Positions 18,317-42,988 of a stretch of 44,610 nt of DNA are shown piece by piece (within the stretch, counting starts at the first letter, position 1; each line of letters opens with the position of its first letter). The position numbers were made by a program, and so were the translations under genes. The stretch covers positions 1 through 44,610 of the forward strand of contig JAODMR010000153.1 in assembly GCA_025465475.1 (NCBI GenBank), given 5' to 3'. Source of the stretch: Micrococcaceae bacterium. GTDB lineage: Bacteria > Actinomycetota > Actinomycetes > Actinomycetales > Micrococcaceae. The notes under the pieces are model-generated. The model did no database searches. It was not told the DNA's origin and saw nothing but the letters and a program-made list of their open reading frames with translations.

Positions 18317-21300
18317 GTGTTTTTCCTCGATTCCGCTGTCGCCGGCCAACCGGCGGATCTGATCTTTTCCGCCAGCGACCTCGTCATTGCCGCCGAATGC
18401 GAATACCGGCTACTGCGCCAACTGGATGAGAAGCTTGGCCGGCGGATCCGCCCGGAGTTTGAGCCCGACCCGATGCTGCAGCGGGCCGCAGTACTGGGCG
18501 ACGTCCACGAACACCGCGTCCTTGCGGACTTCGTGGCGACCCACGGTTCGTGGAACCCGAACATAGGTTCCGGTGTCTATGAGATCTCACCGATAGCCTC
18601 CGACACAGGAATGGACCGCGCCCTGCTGGCGGCCAAGCACAGGGAGTCCCTCGACGCCCTAAAGCGTGGCGCCGATGTGGTGTTTCAAGCATCATTTTTC
18701 GATGGCAGCTTCCACGGGCGCTCGGACTTTCTGGTCCGCACCGCGACAGGTCAGTATGCCATCTATGACACCAAGCTGGCGCGCCACGCGAAGGTGACGG
18801 CCCTGCTCCAATTGGCAGCCTATGGCGACCAACTGCTGCGCATGGGATTGGAGCCGGACCCCACCATGACATTGGTGCTGGGCAATGGTGTCCACAGCGA
18901 CCACGTTCTGCGGGACGTGTTGCCCGTTTTTTACCAACGCCGTGCCCGGTTCCTGTCGATCACGGGGGCGCACCGAAAAGAATCGGCCGTCGAGTGGGGC
19001 GACGCGCGCTACACCGCGTGCGGACGTTGTGACTACTGCGCCGAGCAGGTGGAACTGCACAGGGACCTGCTGCTGGTGGCGGGCATGACCGGCAGCCGAA
19101 GGGCCAAGCTGCAGCACGCTGGAATCCACACCATCGAGCAACTGGCGGAACTTCCGGCAGGAACAGACTCCACCCTCAACCGGCTTCGCGACCAGGCACG
19201 TCTGCAAACCGGCCGGGCGGAGCTCGACGGCGAGGTCAGCTATCCGGATGGCAAGGGAACCGAAAGCACCTTGGGCTACCGGATCCTGCCGGAGAACACG
19301 CTGGACAGGCTGCCACCTCCCAGCCCCGGTGACATCTTCTTCGACTTCGAGGGCGATCCGTTGTGGCAGGACCCTCTCACCGGGAGTTGGGGCATCGAGT
19401 ACCTGTTCGGCGTCCTGGAAAACCCGGAAAGCGCGGGCGCGAAACCGGTCTTTCGGCCCTTCTGGGCACACAACCGCCTCCAGGAGCGACAGGCGTTCAC
19501 GGATTTCCTGGCATACCTGAAAGCGCGCCGGCAACGGTGGCCGGATCTCCACGTCTACCACTACGCATCCTACGAGAAGACAGCGCTGCGACACCTGTCC
19601 CTGACCCACGTCGTGGGTGAGGCCGCCGTGGACGAGCTGCTGCGGGACGGCGTCCTCGTTGACCTGTACGAGACCGTCCGGCACAGCGTCAGGATTTCGG
19701 CGGGTTCCTACAGCATCAAGAAGCTCGAACCGCTGTATATGGGTACCAACCTTCGCAGCGGCGAGGTGAAGGACGCGGGAGCGTCGGTGGTGGCATACGC
19801 CAACTACTGCACCGCCAGGGACGAGGGTCGGGCGGAGGAGGCTGCTGACATCCTGGCCGCCATCAGCGACTACAACGAGTACGACTGCCTTTCCACGCTG
19901 GAACTGCACAATTGGCTCCTGTCCCGTGCCGCGGAGCGCGGCATCGGCGCCCGCATCCAGCAGGCCGGGGAACCGGAGGAGGAACAGCCCGGCTACGAGC
20001 CCACGCCGGAGGAAACGGCCCTGCTCGCCTATCTTGAGACCCTGCCCCAAAACGTGCCCGCGAACCCAGATGAGCAGGCCGTCGCCCTGCTGGCCGCGGC
20101 GGTGGGGTATCACCGCAGGGAAGACAAACAGTTCTGGTGGGCGCATTACGACCGGCTTAACACCCCACCGGCCGATTGGGTGGACCTCCGCGACGTCTTC
20201 CTGGTTGAGCAGGGGCAGGTCCTGAGCGACTGGGCCAAACCCTCGCCGCGCAGTAATCCGGCCAGGACCATCCGCCTGTCCGGACATCTCGCGGAAGGAT
20301 CAAATTTCACCCCCGGCGGTTCACGGAACTTTTTCCGCATGTATGCCGACCCCTTGCCCGACATGCTGCTAACCCCGGAAAATGCCCGGAACGTCCGGGC
20401 CGGGCAATTCGGTGGCGTCGAGGTGGTTGAACTGGACCGGGACGCGGAGCTGGACCTGCTCGTCATCAGGGAATCCCTGCCGCGCGGGGCAGAACCCTAC
20501 GGCCAGTTACCCCTTGCGTTGACCGCCGGTGCGCCCGTGCGCACCACCGGCCAGAGGGACGCCATAGCCTCATTGGCCGCTGCCGTTGCCTCCCGCCTGC
20601 CCGACATGCTGGATCATCCCGGCATCGATCTGCTGCGCCGGCGCCCGCCACGGCTGCGTACCCTGACCTCATTGCCACCAGTAGGGCCGGGACAGGACGG
20701 CTACGTGGAAGCCATAACAGCCGCCGTGGCGGACCTCGACTCCTCATACCTTGCCGTGCAGGGCCCACCCGGAACGGGCAAGACGCACGTCGGCGCCCAC
20801 GTGCTGGCCCGGCTGGTTGAACGGGGCTGGAAGATTGGCGTGGTCGCGCAGTCCCACGCCGTTGTGGAGAACATGCTCTCCGCCGCCGTCGTCAAGGCGG
20901 GCGTTCCGGCTGACCGGACAGCCAAGAAACAGGTCGATCAAAGCCTCCCCGTGCCCTGGCATGGCACGTCGGAGGAAGACGTCCAGCGGCTACTTGCCTC
21001 TTCCGGCGGCGCCCTGATTGGCGGAACTGCCTGGACCATGACCGGGTCAAGTGTCCCTCCCGGGTCGCTGGACCTGCTGGTCATCGACGAAGCCGGGCAA
21101 TTTTCCTTGGCCAACACGCTGGCGGTGTGCCGGGCAACGCGACGGCTGCTGCTGCTCGGCGATCCGCAGCAGCTTCCCCAGGTATCCCAGGGCAGGCACC
21201 CCGCTCCGGTGGATGAGTCGGCGCTGGGCTGGCTGTCCCGAGGGCACCATGTGCTGCCGGAGGAATTCGGGTACTTCCTTGCGACCACGTGGCGGATGCA

Positions 21301-21928
21301 CCCTGAGCTGTGTGCCGCGGTATCGGCGTACGCCTATGATGGCAAACTGCGGTCGGCACCGGCAGCCACGCTCCGGCGGCTAGAAGGCCCTGCGGCGGGG
21401 TTGGCCAGCAGCATGGTGCAGCATTCGGGGAACTCCACCTCCTCCCCTGAGGAGGCGGAGGAGGTGGTCCGCCAGGTGAAGCTGCATCTGGGTTGTTCCT
21501 GGCTGGACCCCTCCGTGGACGACGGGTCCGGGCGTGGATCCGGTGCCCGCCCGCTGGAATTGCAGGACATCCTGGTGGTGGCCGCCTACAACGCGCAGGT
21601 GCAACTGATCCGCACAGCCTTGGAAATCGCGGGGCTGGGGAAGGTCCGGGTGGGAACAGTGGACAAGTTCCAGGGCCAGGAAGCAGCAATCGTGCTCGTG
21701 TCCCTGGCCGCCTCGACACCACATGACGTTCCTCGCGGCATGGACTTCCTGCTGTCGCGAAACCGGATCAACGTCGCCATCTCCCGGGGCCAATGGCGCG
21801 CCGTAGTGGTGCAATCCCCGGCCCTGACCGATTACCTTCCGGCCCACCCCGCCGGCTTGGAACAACTCGGTGCGTTCCTAGGCCTCTGCTCCCCGGTCAA
21901 CCCCTCCCCCGATCGGCCCCGTCGGTGA
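18317..21928 (+). CDS. TM0106-type RecB-like nuclease fused to RNase-H-fold exonuclease and SF1 helicase
   Basis: 1203 residues; GTG start with GGAGGGG upstream. (1) Residues ~15-245: PD-(D/E)XK nuclease with GRSDFLV near 136, YDTKLAR near 150 and the QLAAYGDQL helix, closing with CGRCDYC at ~235-241, a Cas4/AddB-like Fe-S candidate. (2) Residues ~255-290: helix-hairpin-helix-like AGIHTIEQLAELP. (3) Residues ~340-545: RNase_H_2/YprB-like DEDD exonuclease, with FFDFEGDP, YHYASYEKTAL and YNEYDCLSTLELHNWL. (4) Residues ~800-1195: SF1 helicase with GPPGTGKT, VIDEAGQFS, LLGDPQQLPQ, TWRMHPEL, VDKFQGQE and NRINVAISR. All catalytic residues seen are intact. It likely acts in DNA end processing or repair; a defence role is possible, but no partner gene is nearby. 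Confidence 0.9.
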   Translation: MFFLDSAVAGQPADLIFSASDLVIAAECEYRLLRQLDEKLGRRIRPEFEPDPMLQRAAVLGDVHEHRVLADFVATHGSWNPNIGSGVYEISPIASDTGMDRALLAAKHRESLDALKRGADVVFQASFFDGSFHGRSDFLVRTATGQYAIYDTKLARHAKVTALLQLAAYGDQLLRMGLEPDPTMTLVLGNGVHSDHVLRDVLPVFYQRRARFLSITGAHRKESAVEWGDARYTACGRCDYCAEQVELHRDLLLVAGMTGSRRAKLQHAGIHTIEQLAELPAGTDSTLNRLRDQARLQTGRAELDGEVSYPDGKGTESTLGYRILPENTLDRLPPPSPGDIFFDFEGDPLWQDPLTGSWGIEYLFGVLENPESAGAKPVFRPFWAHNRLQERQAFTDFLAYLKARRQRWPDLHVYHYASYEKTALRHLSLTHVVGEAAVDELLRDGVLVDLYETVRHSVRISAGSYSIKKLEPLYMGTNLRSGEVKDAGASVVAYANYCTARDEGRAEEAADILAAISDYNEYDCLSTLELHNWLLSRAAERGIGARIQQAGEPEEEQPGYEPTPEETALLAYLETLPQNVPANPDEQAVALLAAAVGYHRREDKQFWWAHYDRLNTPPADWVDLRDVFLVEQGQVLSDWAKPSPRSNPARTIRLSGHLAEGSNFTPGGSRNFFRMYADPLPDMLLTPENARNVRAGQFGGVEVVELDRDAELDLLVIRESLPRGAEPYGQLPLALTAGAPVRTTGQRDAIASLAAAVASRLPDMLDHPGIDLLRRRPPRLRTLTSLPPVGPGQDGYVEAITAAVADLDSSYLAVQGPPGTGKTHVGAHVLARLVERGWKIGVVAQSHAVVENMLSAAVVKAGVPADRTAKKQVDQSLPVPWHGTSEEDVQRLLASSGGALIGGTAWTMTGSSVPPGSLDLLVIDEAGQFSLANTLAVCRATRRLLLLGDPQQLPQVSQGRHPAPVDESALGWLSRGHHVLPEEFGYFLATTWRMHPELCAAVSAYAYDGKLRSAPAATLRRLEGPAAGLASSMVQHSGNSTSSPEEAEEVVRQVKLHLGCSWLDPSVDDGSGRGSGARPLELQDILVVAAYNAQVQLIRTALEIAGLGKVRVGTVDKFQGQEAAIVLVSLAASTPHDVPRGMDFLLSRNRINVAISRGQWRAVVVQSPALTDYLPAHPAGLEQLGAFLGLCSPVNPSPDRPRR

Positions 21929-25080: not shown

Positions 25081-26403
25081 TTACGCCCCTATCGGCTCTG
25101 CCGCAAGGCCCGCCCACACCGGACCCGACGGGTAGGTGTGGCTGGTGATCGTCCCGGGTAGTATCTCGCTGCCCCCGCCGGGCTCCGACGGTGGCCAGTA
25201 CCGGCCGGAATGGACGGTGACAGGCACAGCGAAATGCTCGTGCAGATGGTCAACGAACTCGATCATCCGGTCCTCCTTGCTGCCGCTAAGCGCCACGTAA
25301 TCGAACATGGCCAGATGCTGCACAGCTTCACAGAGGCCCACCCCGCCGGCGTGCGGGCACACCGGGACGCCGAACTTGGCGGCAAGCAGCAGGATGGCCA
25401 CGTTTTCGTTAACTCCAGCCACGCGGGCCGCATCAATCTGCAGCACGGACAGTGCCTCCGCCTGGAGCAGTTGCTTGAAAACAATGCGGTTCTGCACGTG
25501 TTCCCCGGTGGCAACCGGGATGGGAGCCACGCCACGGGCGATGGCGGCATGACCGAGGATATCGTCGGGGCTGGTGGGCTCCTCAATCCATGCGATGTCA
25601 TATGGGGCCAGGTGCTTCATCCAGTCGATGGCTTCCTGGACTCCCCACCGCTGGTTGGCGTCCACCGCGATACGCACATCCGGCCCCACTGCCGCACGGG
25701 CGGCCCGCACCCGGCGGATGTCGTCGTCCAGGTCGGCTCCGACCTTGAGTTTGATCTGAGTGAAGCCTTCGGCGAGCGCCTCCCGGGCCAGACGGGACAG
25801 CTTTTCGTCGCTGTAGCCCAGCCAACCGGGTGTGGTCGTGTAGGCGGGATAACCCTCCGTCTGCAGGGCCTCTTCCCGGTTTGCCCGTCCGGGCTCGGCG
25901 GCACGCAGCAGGGCCAGGGCTTCCGCGGGGGTCAGCGCATCCTCGATGTAGCGGAAGTCGACAAGTTCAACGAGTTCTTCCGGCGTCATCCGGGCGAGCA
26001 GCTGCCAGAGCGGCAGGTTGGCCCGCTTTGCCTTGAGGTCCCACAGCGCGTTGATGATGGCGCCGATCGCCATGTGCAAGACGCCCTTTTCCGGTCCGAG
26101 CCAGCGCAGCTGCGAATCGTGAACAAGCATCTTCCAGGTTGCCCCCATGGCGTCCAGCAGGTCCTCCACCCGCCGGCCGACCAGATACGGAGCCAATGCA
26201 GCGACGGCAGCCGTCTCAACGTCGTTGCCGCGCCCGATCGTGAAAACGAAGCCGTGGCCCTCAAGGCCGTCATCACTGTCCGTCCGCAGCCGGACATAGG
26301 CGGCGGAGTAGTCGGGATCGGGGTTCATCGCATCCGAACCGTCCAATTCCCGCGAGGTGGGAAACCGGATGTCGTGCGTGTCTACGGCGGTAATGATGCT
26401 CAC
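25081..26403 (-). CDS. L-fuconate dehydratase (enolase superfamily)
   Basis: 440 residues; GTG at 26403 with AGGAG upstream, matching the usual length. The N terminus [20 protein letters not shown] and [15 protein letters not shown] is characteristic of L-fuconate dehydratase and its ENOSF1 homologues. Barrel motifs: FTQIKLKVG (catalytic Lys), [10 protein letters not shown] (metal Asp), [10 protein letters not shown] (metal Glu), ATGEHVQNR (metal Glu) and [11 protein letters not shown] (catalytic His). It removes water from L-fuconate to give 2-keto-3-deoxy-L-fuconate using Mg2+. Together with the adjacent AKR, FAH and SDR genes it defines the non-phosphorylative L-fucose route. Confidence 0.92.
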
Positions 26404-38538: not shown

Positions 38539-39177
38539 TTACTTACTGATGAGCGGACTCAGGGTTGATGCCATTTCCGCGGCACCGGCCAGGCCCAGCG
38601 ACTCCAGCCAGTTGCCAAGCATCTGGTAGCCGCCCTCCGTCAGCACTGATTCCGGATGGAACTGCACGCCGTACAGCGGGGCAGTGCGGTGGGCGAGCCC
38701 CATGATGATGCCGCTCTCGGTACGGGCGGTGACTTCCAGCTCGGCCGGGATCGACTCGCTGACTGCGGCCAGGGAGTGGTAGCGCGTGGCAGTGAAGGGG
38801 CTCCGCAGGCCGGCGAAGACGTTCGCGCCTTCATGCAGAACGTCGGAAGTCTTTCCGTGCATCAGCTCAGGGGCGTGGGTGACGGTTCCGCCGTAGGCTT
38901 CGGCCAGCGCCTGGTGCCCCAGGCAGACGCCGAGCATCGGCTTGCCGTTGTCGCCGCACCATTTGATGAGGTCAATGCACACGCCGGCCTCGGCAGGGTT
39001 ACCCGGCCCGGGAGATATGAGGACCCCGTCGCGTGGCTCCGCCAGGGCAATCGCCTCCTCCAGGGTGACGTCGTCGTTGCGGACGACAGTGGTCTCGGCC
39101 CCGAGTTGCTGGAGGTACCCGACGAGGGTGTACACAAAGCTGTCATAGTTGTCGATGACCAGGATGCGTGTTGTCAT
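38539..39177 (-). CDS. pabA: Aminodeoxychorismate/anthranilate synthase glutamine amidotransferase
   Basis: 212 residues, a full-length class I glutamine amidotransferase: ILVIDNYDSFVYTLVGYL, ISPGPGNPAEAG (oxyanion region), GVCLGHQALAEAYGG with nucleophile Cys85, and YGVQFHPESVLT with His174 and Glu176. It releases ammonia from glutamine for the chorismate-using partner in folate (PabB) or tryptophan (TrpE) synthesis; the two families cannot be told apart here. This gene is conserved beside pknB across Actinomycetota, annotated trpG or pabA. It is divergent from crgA. Confidence 0.92.
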   Translation of the reverse strand: MTTRILVIDNYDSFVYTLVGYLQQLGAETTVVRNDDVTLEEAIALAEPRDGVLISPGPGNPAEAGVCIDLIKWCGDNGKPMLGVCLGHQALAEAYGGTVTHAPELMHGKTSDVLHEGANVFAGLRSPFTATRYHSLAAVSESIPAELEVTARTESGIIMGLAHRTAPLYGVQFHPESVLTEGGYQMLGNWLESLGLAGAAEMASTLSPLISK

Positions 39178-39406
39178 GGCTGGGAATCAGAACCAATCGT
39201 TGAGGTTGTGCAGCGGCCCGCAGAAGCTGCGGACTCCTGATTCTATCGCCTGGCCGTCCGATGGTCCCGATCCCGGTTGGGCAGAACCGGTTAGAATGGC
39301 ACCCAGAGCCACCGTTGCCGGACCCTTTTACGGGATTCCAGCAGCCTGCATCCAACCGCTACAGCAAGCGGCCCGGCCTGGCGCCGTGCCCGGACAAGGA
39401 GTTCCT

Positions 39407-39661
39407 GTGCCCGAGTCGAAACCCCGCCGCCGCGAGTCCCGCAGCGTTCCGGCCCAACCGGCCGCGAAGGCCTACAAGCCCAATGCCGTCTGGTTCAAGC
39501 CCGTGATGGTCGGCCTCATGGTGTTGGGGCTGCTGTGGATCATCGTCTTTTACCTCACCAACGGCATGTGGCCCATCCCCAACATCGGCAACTGGAACAT
39601 CGCCGTCGGTTTCGGCATTGCCATTGCAGGGTTCCTCATGACCACGCAGTGGCGGTCCTAG
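39407..39661 (+). CDS. crgA: Cell division protein CrgA
   Basis: 84 residues from GTG 39407 with AAGGAG upstream; the longer frame from 39149 overlaps pabA and lacks support. A basic cytoplasmic N terminus (PESKPRRRESRS) is followed by VWFKPVMVGLMVLGLLWIIV (first helix), the conserved external loop YLTNGMWPIPNIGNWN, and a second helix ending MTTQWRS. CrgA is a small two-helix membrane protein that coordinates FtsZ, FtsQ and PBPs at the septum and is unique to Actinomycetota. Its place next to the pknB operon is conserved. Confidence 0.95.
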   Translation: MPESKPRRRESRSVPAQPAAKAYKPNAVWFKPVMVGLMVLGLLWIIVFYLTNGMWPIPNIGNWNIAVGFGIAIAGFLMTTQWRS

Positions 39662-40236: not shown

Positions 40237-40493
40237 GCACGCCTCACGTCTGGTGGACCAAAGGTTCTGGTGCGGACCATGCGTCAGCTAACCCGGCTCA
40301 GTGGTCGACGAACCCGCCCCAGACACCCCGCTACATCCAGCCCGCACACTGAAGGCTTGCTGCGTCCAGTTTCACGCACCGCATCCGGTCCGTCCGCCGC
40401 GTCCGATCCCCGCCCGCTGCGTCCCCGCCCGCCGCATCCGGTCCACCCCGCGTCCGTTGAGCTCCTCCGGTCAGAAGAACACGTGGCGCAAGG

Positions 40494-40509
40494 AAAACCC
40501 CGGGAGGGG
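40494..40509 (-). terminator. Terminator of the acidic repeat protein gene
   Basis: Directly after the TAG stop on the minus strand: CCCC-TCCC-GGGG followed by TTTTCC. The stem is short but has a T-run in the right place. Confidence 0.6.
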
Positions 40510-40851
40510 CTATTTGTCGTGACTGACCGTTCCTGCGGCACCATAGTCGCCGTCGTCGTACTGTCCTGCCTGCTCGTCGTCCTCGTCGAGGGCCTTTGAT
40601 GAACCGGCAGAGCCGAAGTCGCCTTCCGGATACTGTCCGGGCTGGCCTTCGGATTCGATTTCGTGCTCATCCGTCAGCGGGTCAACGCCTTCGACGTTCC
40701 CAGCCGTGCCGTAGTCCCCCTGGACGTACTGACCCTCACTGGCGGACGAATCCGACGAATCGCTTGACGCCGAACCCCCATGCACGTATTCGCCCCTTGC
40801 CCCTTCCTCTGCTGAATCGTTGCCGCTGCTATGTTCCCGGTGTTCTGTCAT
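40510..40851 (-). CDS. Small acidic protein with GQYxxGDYGxAG repeats
   Basis: 113 residues from ATG 40851 with GGAGGGA upstream; the frame runs on to 41022 but that part crosses the DnaA-box cluster. It is strongly acidic with no hydrophobic segment. Four copies of a repeat: GEYVHGGSASS (degenerate), GQYVQGDYGTAG, GQYPEGDFGSAG and GQYDDGDYGAAG, separated by Asp/Glu/Ser linkers such as VDPLTDEHEIESEGQ. No family recognised; likely disordered, with aromatic Tyr/Phe spaced in acidic sequence. A terminator follows the stop. It lies between crgA and the DnaA-box cluster. Function unknown. Confidence 0.7.
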   Translation of the reverse strand: MTEHREHSSGNDSAEEGARGEYVHGGSASSDSSDSSASEGQYVQGDYGTAGNVEGVDPLTDEHEIESEGQPGQYPEGDFGSAGSSKALDEDDEQAGQYDDGDYGAAGTVSHDK

Positions 40852-40933
40852 TCCGATCCCTCCAGTTCTCACGCAGGTACCGCCCGTTGCCCTCAGTGTA
40901 GCCAGCAAAGCTACCGGGGAGTAGGGCCCAAAC

Positions 40934-41248
40934 TTATCCCCAAAAACCTGTGGAGAACGCGTCCGCAGTTTGGGGATAAGTGGATAACGCTGTGGCTTGT
41001 CGGATGCCAATGCTAGCCTCACAGGTTGTTGACAGGTTTATCCACAGGAGTGGACAACTTTGCGGGGCGGGATGCCGATATTGGATGAAAGAGCGCCGCT
41101 GGCACTGTCCACACCTGTGGAGTTACATGTGTGTAAGTTGTCCCCAATGTGCACAACCATGTGGATAAGGCTCTGTTCCCACAACGAGCTTCGAATTCGA
41201 AGAACATGCGTGTAAGTTATGCCCACGTGTGGACGACGCTGTGGACAA
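40934..41248. promoter_or_regulatory. Cluster of about 11 DnaA-box-like 9-mers
   Basis: Exact matches to the consensus TTATCCACA or TTGTCCACA: 41038 (+), 41160-41168 (-), 41240-41248 (-). TTATCCCCA at 40934 (+) and 40971 (-), and TTGTCCCCA at 41138 (+). One-mismatch boxes at 40979 (-), 41049 (-), 41105 (+), 41148 (-) and 41228 (-). Both orientations occur. A 14-bp palindrome (41189-41202) and an imperfect ~30-bp direct repeat (41124 and 41204) are also inside. There is no gene across 40852-41321. The density resembles actinobacterial oriC, but dnaA and dnaN are not adjacent. Confidence 0.75.
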
Positions 41249-41262
41249 CAGCGGGAAAAGAC

Positions 41263-41297
41263 AAAAAAACCGCCCGCGTCCAGAAGGACGCGGGCGG
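41263..41297 (-). terminator. Intrinsic terminator of the rhomboid gene
   Basis: CCGCCCGCGTCC (41270-41281) pairs with GGACGCGGGCGG (41286-41297) around a 4-base loop. On the minus strand the stem is followed by seven T (41269-41263). Very strong intrinsic terminator, 25 bp after the rhomboid stop. Confidence 0.95.
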
Positions 41298-41321
41298 TTA
41301 CGTGGCAGTCGGCTCCACAAC

Positions 41322-42197
41322 TCACAGCACGTACTGCACCGCCTCGGCGTGGATGGCTGCCGCCCGTACAACGGTCAAGACGACCAACAGCAGCACCACG
41401 ACGGCCAAACCACCCCACTGGTATAGCCCCCGACGGGCACGCGCAGGTACGTATGCCAGAACAACGGCGGCCAGCCCCCCGGCCAGCAATCCGCCCAGGT
41501 GGGCCTGCCACGCGATGCCAGCCACGAAAAAGCCCAGGGCGGCGTTGATTGCTATCAACACCACGATCTGGCGAACGTCCCCGCCCCGCTGGCGTTGAAC
41601 GACGAAGAGAGCCCCGAACAACCCGAATATGGCTCCAGAAGCACCCACAACGGGAACGCCCAAGGGGGAAAGCAGGAGGACCCCTACCGAGCCGCCAAAC
41701 GCCGAAATGAGGTAGAGCGCAAGGAATCGTGCCCGGCCCAAGACCGGTTCAAGTGCATTGCCCAGGATCCACAGGGCATACATGTTGAACAGGATGTGGG
41801 GAAGGAAGTTCTGCGAGTGCAGGAACGCCGCGGTGAGCATACGCCAGGGCTGGAATTCGGTATACACAGGGGCATACCAAAGGGTCGTCTCCACCGACAA
41901 TCCCGGCAGAAACTGCAGCAGGAAAGCCAGAGCGCACATCACGATCAGGGTCAGGGTGACGACCGGTTTGCCGCCCGCCCGCACCGTGCCGCCGTAGCCG
42001 GAACGGTAGGTGGGGGCGGAGCGGGAAGCCTCGGCAACACAATCGACACACTGCACGCCAACCGCAGCTGGCCGCTGGCAATCGCTGCAGGCAGGCCGGC
42101 CGCACCTTTGGCAGCGCACATAGGAGATCCGGTCCGGATGACGGGGGCAAACAGGAACCTGGGTACCGGCATCCGGCATCGTGGATCCATAGCTCAT
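41322..42197 (-). CDS. Rhomboid-family intramembrane serine protease with zinc ribbon
   Basis: 291 residues. The N terminus (~17-53) is a B-box-like zinc-binding module: CPRHPDR, CQRCGRPACSDC, CVDC. Six or seven membrane helices follow. Rhomboid features: RMLTAAFLHSQNFLPHILFN (HxxxN oxyanion helix), GASGAIFG with catalytic Ser187, and WQAHLGGLLAG with catalytic His233. It cleaves membrane-protein segments within the bilayer. It is second in a two-gene unit after the cyclophilin gene (48 bp gap). Such zinc-ribbon rhomboids are conserved near ppiA and crgA in Actinomycetota. Confidence 0.94.
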   Translation of the reverse strand: MSYGSTMPDAGTQVPVCPRHPDRISYVRCQRCGRPACSDCQRPAAVGVQCVDCVAEASRSAPTYRSGYGGTVRAGGKPVVTLTLIVMCALAFLLQFLPGLSVETTLWYAPVYTEFQPWRMLTAAFLHSQNFLPHILFNMYALWILGNALEPVLGRARFLALYLISAFGGSVGVLLLSPLGVPVVGASGAIFGLFGALFVVQRQRGGDVRQIVVLIAINAALGFFVAGIAWQAHLGGLLAGGLAAVVLAYVPARARRGLYQWGGLAVVVLLLVVLTVVRAAAIHAEAVQYVL

Positions 42198-42245: not shown

Positions 42246-42788
42246 TTAGAGCTGTTCGACGGTGATGCTGTTGATGACGACGTCCTGGCGTGGCTTGTCC
42301 CCGGGGCCGGTGGCGACACCCTCGATGGCGTCAACAACTGCCTTGGACTCATCGTCAGCCACTTCGCCGAAGATGCTGTGCTTGCCCTGCAGCCAGGTGG
42401 TCGGGACCGTCGTGATGAAGAACTGGGACCCATTGGTACCGCGTCCACCCTGAATGCCGGCATTCGCCATGGCCAGCTTGTAGGGCTCATTGAAGCTCAG
42501 CTCCGGGTGGATCTCGTCGTCGAACTGGTAACCCGGTCCGCCCACGCCGCGGCCAAGCGGGTCACCGGCCTGAACCATGAAGTCTTTGATGATGCGGTGG
42601 AAGATGGTGCCGTCATAAAGCGGCGCGTTGGTCTTTTCGCCGGTCGCCGGGTGGGTCCATGTCGTCTCACCGGTGGCCAGGCCAACGAAGTTCTTGACAG
42701 TCTTGGGCGCGTGGTTACCGAAGAGGTTCACGACGATGTCGCCCTGGTTGGTGTGGATGGTTGCTTTGGCTGTAGGAATAGCATTCAT
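42246..42788 (-). CDS. ppiA: Cyclophilin-type peptidyl-prolyl cis-trans isomerase
   Basis: 180 residues from ATG 42788 with GGAAG upstream; a frame extending to 42839 is not needed. Cyclophilin core: ATIHTNQGDIVVNLFGNHAP, TIFHRIIKDFMVQAGDPLG (catalytic Arg and Phe region), LAMANAGIQGGRGTNGSQFF with Gln and Phe, and WLQGKHSIFGEV with Trp. No signal peptide, so cytosolic. It speeds proline isomerisation during folding. This is the origin-proximal ppiA of actinobacteria, co-directional with rhomboid and divergent from the hendecad-repeat gene. Confidence 0.95.
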   Translation of the reverse strand: MNAIPTAKATIHTNQGDIVVNLFGNHAPKTVKNFVGLATGETTWTHPATGEKTNAPLYDGTIFHRIIKDFMVQAGDPLGRGVGGPGYQFDDEIHPELSFNEPYKLAMANAGIQGGRGTNGSQFFITTVPTTWLQGKHSIFGEVADDESKAVVDAIEGVATGPGDKPRQDVVINSITVEQL

Positions 42789-42988
42789 GCGGCCATTCTT
42801 CCACGCGGGGGCTGACAGTATCCTGGAATTACCCGTCATTGCGCGGAAAGTGAACCGTCCGAAGCCGGTTGTCCGCCACGGAAAGGGGCGGCACGGATCC
42901 TCCGCGCCCGTCGTTCAAGGGAATAGCCGGAAGCAATCAATGCACGTAGGCTATGGAAAGACTTGCCAAACAAATCCGGGAGGACGTT

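What the first reader, a model, noticed from the sequence alone, without database searches (positions are those of the whole stretch)
40934..41248. Origin-like DnaA-box cluster between rhomboid and a small acidic gene
About eleven DnaA-box-like 9-mers in 315 bp, three exact (TTATCCACA twice, TTGTCCACA once), in both orientations, in a gene-free stretch. Density is that of an actinobacterial oriC, yet no dnaA or dnaN flanks it; the local genes (crgA, rhomboid, ppiA) normally lie some 10-20 kb from dnaA. A box cluster outside oriC that modulates initiation is known in Streptomyces coelicolor, and datA/DARS loci in E. coli. This could be such a titration or reactivation site, or an unusual or second origin.
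Basis: partly seen in the sequence, partly recalled or inferred. Interest (0 to 1): 0.82.

Follow-up and report, generated by a model that had tools for sequence, protein, structure and literature searches.

The report
Conserved DnaA-box and palindrome cluster
Probably about 15 kb from the gene for the replication starter protein DnaA, this bacterium and many relatives keep a gene-free stretch packed with DnaA-binding sequences around a conserved palindrome, probably a switch that limits when the chromosome is copied, or possibly a second start point.

Summary
Window 40934-41248 has 12 DnaA boxes with at most one mismatch, three exact: the tightest group of exact boxes in the 3.54-Mb draft genome, denser than its own dnaA-dnaN gap (6 boxes). 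All 23 family genomes examined have 4 or more boxes 3' of the same rhomboid gene. The boxes surround a 14-bp palindrome, TTACA-N4-TGTAA (41123-41136), found there in 23/23 family, 19/20 named Micrococcaceae and 31/54 other actinobacterial loci; two control patterns gave 0/110 each; a box abuts 82 of 91 palindromes. Outside Micrococcaceae the site mostly lies between directly convergent genes (40 of 47 named loci), which speaks against a promoter there. The usual oriC core is intact between dnaA and dnaN. I read the cluster as an origin-near DnaA control site (titration or nucleotide switching) with an unidentified partner protein: the kind known from B. subtilis, S. coelicolor and E. coli datA/DARS, with the palindrome as an apparently new part. 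Strand-composition hints that replication may start at the cluster in some relatives are confounded and rest on few genomes. DnaA binding and function are untested.

The parts
40934..41248 (.). DnaA-box cluster: 12 boxes with at most 1 mismatch at 40934+, 40949-, 40971-, 40979-, 41038+ (exact), 41049-, 41105+, 41138+, 41148-, 41160- (exact), 41228-, 41240- (exact)
   Evidence: conserved in relatives
41123..41136 (.). palindrome TTACA-TGTG-TGTAA, presumed site of an unidentified dimeric protein, flanked by boxes 41105+ and 41138+/41148-
   Evidence: one of 4 copies of TTACAN4TGTAR in the genome (reversed control pattern 0)
41202..41215 (.). degenerate second copy of the palindrome (GAACATGCGTGTAA; 2 mismatches to TTACAN4TGTAA), as in relatives with two modules
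   Evidence: my reading of the sequence; two-module relatives
41258..41299 (-). likely intrinsic terminator of the rhomboid gene (14-pair stem at 41268-41299, then T-rich tail), between rhomboid and cluster
   Evidence: consensus match: 2 sites in the region, 0.8 expected in shuffles
41322..42197 (-). rhomboid protease gene (Pfam Rhomboid), the conserved neighbour
42246..42839 (-). ppiA, cyclophilin-type isomerase, conserved upstream neighbour of the rhomboid
40510..40851 (-). small acidic repeat protein; among 110 loci searched by tblastn only the own one (L004) matches
   Evidence: no Pfam family (scanned as the longer ORF 40510-41022)
39149..39661 (+). ORF holding crgA (CrgA domain, residues 88-169), pointing towards the rhomboid

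Best explanation
The cluster is an origin-near DnaA-binding control site, not the main oriC. Proposed mechanism: DnaA fills the paired boxes and a second, unidentified dimeric protein binds the abutting palindrome TTACA-N4-TGTAA. Together they build a nucleoprotein complex that holds DnaA away from oriC, or changes its bound nucleotide. Because the site lies near oriC it is doubled soon after initiation, which would help to block a second round. Shown: the boxes, the palindrome, their spacing, their conservation beside the same gene, and an intact oriC core elsewhere. Inferred: the distance in this draft genome, DnaA binding, the partner protein, and the effect on initiation.
For: Boxes far above chance and conserved beside the same gene. 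Palindrome (at most 1 mismatch) in the 1.3 kb 3' of the rhomboid in 23/23 family genomes examined, 19/20 named Micrococcaceae and 31/54 other actinobacteria; 0/110 for each of two control patterns; 82 of 91 palindromes have a box (at most 2 mismatches) within 3 bp, against 10% of random positions. 49 palindromes in 83 kb of such DNA against 2 in 1205 kb elsewhere in the longer loci. Outside Micrococcaceae the site is mostly between directly convergent rhomboid and crgA genes: 40 of 47 named loci, of which 26 have the palindrome and 31 at least two boxes in the first 300 bp, so a promoter role is unlikely there. The dnaA-dnaN gap carries a conserved oriC core (box pair, then TTATTAACACTAC..AATCCC, then AT-rich DNA): 0-7 mismatches of 27 in 19 of 21 family gaps, 0 in the own genome, against 6-13 in 42 clusters. 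A putative oriC published for a Micrococcaceae member (Kocuria rhizophila) lies between dnaA and dnaN with a DUE, DnaA-trios and box arrays (PMC12500396, passages). Clusters outside oriC repress untimely initiation in B. subtilis and S. coelicolor (PMC5742627, passage); deleting six of them in B. subtilis gives early initiation (PMC13220808, passage).
Against: No binding or deletion data. In many Micrococcaceae the site is not between directly convergent genes (4 of 20 named loci are; others have ORFs between rhomboid and crgA, some reading away from the cluster), so a promoter role is less unlikely there. Gene-corrected strand composition places the replication switch nearer the cluster than dnaA-dnaN in G031 and G024, which a pure control site does not predict. 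The lowest-GC 40-bp stretch in clusters of relatives is often as AT-rich as in their oriC gaps, so a duplex-opening role is not ruled out. The 27-position core was written from the gaps it scores, and its scores overlap with clusters at 6-7 mismatches. The partner protein is unknown.
Confidence: 0.55

Rival explanations
1. The cluster is a working origin (main or second) in cluster-bearing Micrococcaceae; dnaA, dnaN, gyrB and gyrA would then be replicated head-on from it.
For: Switch-point likelihood on fourfold-site GC skew, gene orientation modelled: G031 best at +15.0 kb from dnaA (support 7-19.5 kb; lnL +3.1 for the cluster over dnaA-dnaN), G024 at +13.0 kb (support -1.5 to 19.5; lnL +1.5). 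G030, with only 4 boxes though it keeps palindromes, and G043, another family without box cluster or palindrome at this place, are best at +0.5 kb (lnL -2.4 and -3.3). Codon-usage classification: dnaN-to-rhomboid genes lagging-like in G031 and G024, weakly in G028, leading-like in G030. Box number against composition difference in 22 Micrococcaceae: Spearman -0.49, p 0.02; independent contrasts r -0.42, p 0.05. Box pairs followed by AT-rich TGTTAATAAC in many clusters.
Against: Raw skew minima at the cluster are largely expected where genes converge, because coding-strand skew is negative in almost every gene class; G037 has its local minimum at the rhomboid without a palindrome, and G056 reads lagging-like there by skew without one. 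Five of nine genomes do not resolve the switch: G034, G035 and G037 are flat, G028 peaks at +73 kb near the scan edge, G056 at -39.5 kb. G035 reads leading-like by codon usage (0.0005 of lagging bootstraps reach it, though its leading and lagging sets hardly differ) and G043 is unresolved there. The oriC core is conserved at dnaA-dnaN, not here. Own cluster: lowest 40-bp GC 0.40 against 0.275 at dnaA-dnaN.
Confidence: 0.2
2. DnaA acts here as a transcription factor for the gene beyond the cluster (the acidic gene in the own genome, other ORFs in relatives).
For: In the own genome the cluster begins 82 bp before the acidic ORF. In many named Micrococcaceae an ORF reading away from the cluster follows it. 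A second box cluster lies upstream of dnaB in relatives, where control of transcription is plausible.
Against: The neighbouring ORFs differ between genomes while the cluster stays; the acidic gene was found in no other locus searched. In 40 of 47 named loci outside Micrococcaceae the genes converge directly. No sigma-70-like promoter in 40450-41500 (only 0.1 expected by chance, so weak evidence). No Rfam family reaches its gathering score.
Confidence: 0.15
3. The conserved unit is mainly the site of the palindrome-binding protein (for example a nucleoid or segregation factor), with DnaA boxes recruited secondarily.
For: The palindrome arms are the most invariant part of the aligned sites, in part because the sites were chosen by them, and the pattern occurs elsewhere at low number (4 copies in the own genome, control 0; 94 against 34 forward matches over 37 family genomes, my addition).
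Against: Boxes abut 82 of 91 palindromes; outgroups without a recognised palindrome can still carry boxes, and box density in 54 other actinobacterial loci is 7.8 per kb in the first 300 bp against 0.53 per kb beyond.
Confidence: 0.08

Closest known systems
oriC-proximal DnaA-box clusters of Bacillus subtilis (Okumura et al. 2012; seen only as cited in passages of PMC5742627 and PMC13220808)
   Same: Box clusters outside oriC; their loss gives early initiation
   Different: Different phylum and genes; I know of no abutting palindrome there (recalled)
Streptomyces coelicolor DnaA-box clusters H69, H24 and D78 (Smulczyk-Krawczyszyn et al. 2006; paper not held; cluster names recalled)
   Same: Actinobacterial box clusters that repress untimely initiation (as cited in PMC5742627). 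By recalled cosmid names H69 may be the crgA region and H24 the dnaB region, matching this cluster and the dnaB cluster
   Different: Orthology not tested; a palindrome is not reported as far as I recall; high-affinity box TTGTCCACA (table in PMC4285127, passage)
Escherichia coli datA and DARS1/DARS2
   Same: Non-coding DnaA-box clusters with partner-protein sites (IHF, Fis) that control DnaA activity (PMC5742627, passages)
   Different: Sequences, partner and positions differ; nucleotide switching here is conjecture
Actinobacterial oriC (dnaA-dnaN gap; for example the putative one of Kocuria rhizophila, PMC12500396, passages)
   Same: Many boxes in both orientations in a gene-free stretch
   Different: No DnaA-trio core found, not beside dnaA, bears the palindrome

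Membership tests
DnaA-box cluster outside oriC (B. subtilis / S. coelicolor type) | box density far above background, outside oriC | tested here: met
DnaA-box cluster outside oriC (B. subtilis / S. coelicolor type) | conserved position in relatives | tested here: met
DnaA-box cluster outside oriC (B. subtilis / S. coelicolor type) | binds DnaA; loss advances initiation | not testable with these tools
   needs ChIP and deletion
DnaA-box cluster outside oriC (B. subtilis / S. coelicolor type) | orthology with S. coelicolor H69 | not tested
   paper not held; cosmid names recalled
datA / DARS | specific box arrangement with IHF or Fis sites; stimulates ATP hydrolysis or ADP release | not testable with these tools
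   no assay; the box arrangement was not compared; the palindrome could play the partner role (inference)
oriC | cluster of DnaA boxes | tested here: met
oriC | DnaA-trio / unwinding core after a box | tested here: not met
   6-13 mismatches to the dnaA-dnaN core in 42 clusters (the gaps themselves: 0-7 in 19 of 21, 9 and 13 in two); trio run at most 1 in 41 of 43 clusters, 2 in two; but the same scan finds 3 or more in only 6 of 21 dnaA-dnaN gaps, so it is weak
oriC | AT-rich unwinding element | tested here: inconclusive
   own cluster 0.40 lowest 40-bp GC against 0.275 at dnaA-dnaN; relatives overlap
oriC | replication-strand switch at the site | tested here: inconclusive
MtrA binding site | 5'-GTCACAGCG-3' (M. 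tuberculosis, listed in PMC4285127, passage) | not tested
   the palindrome is a 14-bp dyad; no motif comparison was run

The most novel reading that the evidence does not exclude
In cluster-bearing Micrococcaceae chromosome replication starts at, or also at, the cluster 3' of the rhomboid gene, some 13-16 kb from dnaA. There DnaA and a new palindrome-binding initiator partner open the DNA, while the dnaA-dnaN oriC is retained as an ancestral or alternative origin.
Probability: 0.18. Interest if true: 0.88.

Novelty: new variant of a known kind. Interest (0 to 1): 0.62.

Why it matters
As far as I know, control of replication initiation in actinobacteria is studied mainly in Streptomyces and Mycobacterium. 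A site conserved in most Micrococcales loci examined, with a specific palindrome beside the DnaA boxes, gives a handle on an unknown DnaA partner protein: the palindrome can be used as bait. It also makes a simple question testable in soil bacteria: does deleting some 350 bp of gene-free DNA change when, or where, the chromosome starts to replicate?

Tried and rejected
Raw GC-skew minimum at the cluster taken as proof of an origin: rejected, because coding-strand skew is negative in nearly all gene classes, so convergent junctions give local minima.

The D test (upstream + genes minus downstream - genes, 45 loci) was confounded by gene-specific codon use; among loci with few boxes values range from -0.12 to +0.25. 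It was kept only within Micrococcaceae with independent contrasts (p 0.05; 16 of the 20 named loci, leaving out L189, L190 and L197 for short flanks and L209 for its broken rhomboid frame, plus the 6 family genomes with long stretches). Codon classification hardly separates leading from lagging genes in G034, G035, G056 and G037 and leaves G043 unresolved.

Mycobacterial loci as evidence of lineage loss: rejected. None of the 13 has boxes or palindrome to speak of (0-1 boxes, 0 palindromes), but none has ppiA or crgA beside its rhomboid either, so they are a different place and serve only as a control.

'Convergent genes throughout': rejected on recount. Directly convergent rhomboid and crgA in 40 of 47 named loci outside Micrococcaceae and mycobacteria, but in only 4 of 20 named Micrococcaceae; for this I lowered the control-site reading from 0.58 to 0.55 and raised the transcription rival from 0.12 to 0.15.

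DnaA-trio scan: too strict, because the adjoining box often has 2 mismatches; the 27-position core was used instead. Low GC as a discriminator: overlapping. RNA element: nothing over the gathering score. The relaxed box pattern was too loose. Papers: ten searches of open-licence PMC papers gave, in their listings and the passages I read, no description of this cluster or palindrome; most subscription papers are not held, and most listed papers were not opened.

Full report
What is there. Between a rhomboid gene (41322-42197, -) and a small acidic ORF (40510-40851, -) lie 12 DnaA boxes with at most one mismatch, three exact, in 315 bp. The draft genome has 43 exact boxes in 3.54 Mb; the three here form its tightest group. 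The dnaA-dnaN gap on contig C94 has 6 boxes and the gap before dnaA has 4. The last long ORF of C94 (read as gyrA, by order) ends at 19101 of 19357, and the window's contig ends 3.4 kb beyond the cluster. By synteny the cluster should lie some 13-16 kb from oriC (inference; in relatives with both matches on one contig 12.6-22.6 kb in 32 of 33).

Conservation. I held rhomboid loci of 23 of the 37 family genomes with a match, the own genome included. In all 23 the 1.3 kb 3' of the rhomboid has 4-14 boxes, median 8. Of 20 named Micrococcaceae loci (Arthrobacter, Pseudarthrobacter, Paenarthrobacter, Haematomicrobium, Nesterenkonia, unclassified), 18 have at least 4 boxes and 19 the palindrome; the miss for the palindrome is L209, whose rhomboid frame is broken so that the tested stretch is misplaced. 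Among 54 other actinobacterial loci (two, L207 and L233, hold under 300 bp there) the first 300 bp hold 7.8 boxes per kb against 0.53 per kb further on, and 37 have at least two. The 13 mycobacterial loci have 0-1 box and no palindrome, but their rhomboid is not beside ppiA or crgA: a different place, so a control, not a loss.

Setting. Of 47 named loci outside Micrococcaceae and mycobacteria, 42 have crgA pointing back at the rhomboid and 40 have no ORF of 90 codons between them; of these 40, 26 have the palindrome and 31 at least two boxes in the first 300 bp. Of 20 named Micrococcaceae, 18 have crgA converging but only 4 directly; the others have one or more ORFs between, in either orientation. 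In the own genome the acidic gene stands there; only the own locus matches it among the 110 searched. A terminator-like hairpin separates rhomboid and cluster.

A new part. The clusters hold a palindrome TTACA-N4-TGTA(A/G). In the longer loci, 49 copies (at most one mismatch) lie in 83 kb of rhomboid-downstream DNA and 2 in 1205 kb elsewhere; one of those two is in L209 with the broken frame. Two control patterns gave 0 of 110. The arrangement is regular: box, 3-4 bp, box, reverse box, 0-1 bp, palindrome, in some lineages a forward box directly after; 82 of 91 palindromes have a box within 3 bp, against 10% of random positions. In the own genome the pattern occurs at 4 places, one being 41123-41136, with 0 for the reversed pattern; 50 of 59 genomes have at least one match, and its listing was cut. 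At another of the 4 places, C69:51182, a CTATCCACA starts 42 bp on. What binds the palindrome is unknown; outgroup variants such as TCACACCGGTGTCA suggest a core broader than my pattern.

Where is the origin? The dnaA-dnaN gap has a conserved core: a box pair, then TTATTAACACTAC-AATCCC, whose other strand reads mostly as TA(A/G) trinucleotides (DnaA-trio definition: passage of PMC5742627), then AT-rich DNA. The own gap matches all 27 specified positions; 19 of 21 family gaps have 0-7 mismatches (G016 has 9, G018 13), 42 clusters 6-13; the consensus was written from these gaps. A published Micrococcaceae genome places a putative oriC there (PMC12500396, passage). Against this, cumulative GC skew bottoms out at the cluster in G028 and G024, but coding-strand skew is negative in nearly every gene class, so convergent genes alone can do this. 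With gene orientation modelled, four of nine genomes give a bounded estimate: G031 and G024 favour the cluster (lnL +3.1, +1.5; G024's interval includes dnaA-dnaN), G030 (4 boxes) and G043 (other family, no cluster) favour dnaA-dnaN (-2.4, -3.3); the other five do not resolve it. Codon classification agrees for G031, G024 and G030, weakly for G028; G035 goes the other way with little power. G056 reads lagging-like by skew without a palindrome. This is an interesting coincidence on few genomes, with gene-specific codon use not fully removed.

Interpretation. I favour an origin-near DnaA control site with a partner protein, working like B. subtilis clusters, S. coelicolor clusters or datA/DARS (passages of PMC5742627, and PMC13220808). 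It meets the positional features of such clusters; binding and effect are untested. Membership in datA/DARS cannot be claimed. As an oriC it fails the unwinding-core test. It may be orthologous to S. coelicolor cluster H69, but that rests on recalled cosmid names; the paper is not held.

A companion. A second box cluster lies directly upstream of dnaB in relatives: of 10 sites inspected, 8 show the DnaB start by my reading of the sequence, one (G037) has rplI- and ssb-like genes beside it, one (G034 -53201) is elsewhere. In the own genome dnaB is at C136:25095-25400 (-), with an exact box at 25622.

Noticed in passing
G000:C136:25622 and relatives (G024 -39.7 kb, G031 -31.8 kb, G035 -45 kb, G030 -47.8 kb, G034 -65.6 kb, G028 +62 kb from dnaA): A second DnaA-box cluster lies just upstream of dnaB, near rpsF/ssb/rplI-like genes; possibly DnaA control of the helicase gene, or another titration site.
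   Followed up: partly
G000:C69:51182, C19:28384, C158:39: The other copies of TTACAN4TGTAR in the genome; one has a near DnaA box 42 bp on (start to start). They may mark other targets, or the gene, of the palindrome-binding protein.
   Followed up: no
window 40510-40851 (-): Small acidic protein with three repeats of the type GQY-x-x-GD(Y/F)G-x-AG; no Pfam family and, among 110 loci searched, no match but the own locus.
   Followed up: partly
G018 (same family): Genome without any TTACAN4TGTAR, with a divergent dnaA-dnaN core (13 mismatches) and 9 boxes in that gap; may have lost the partner protein.
   Followed up: no
window 18317-21928 (+): Large ORF with RNase H-like (RNase_H_2) and helicase-type AAA domains, not a usual member of this neighbourhood as far as I recall.
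   Followed up: no
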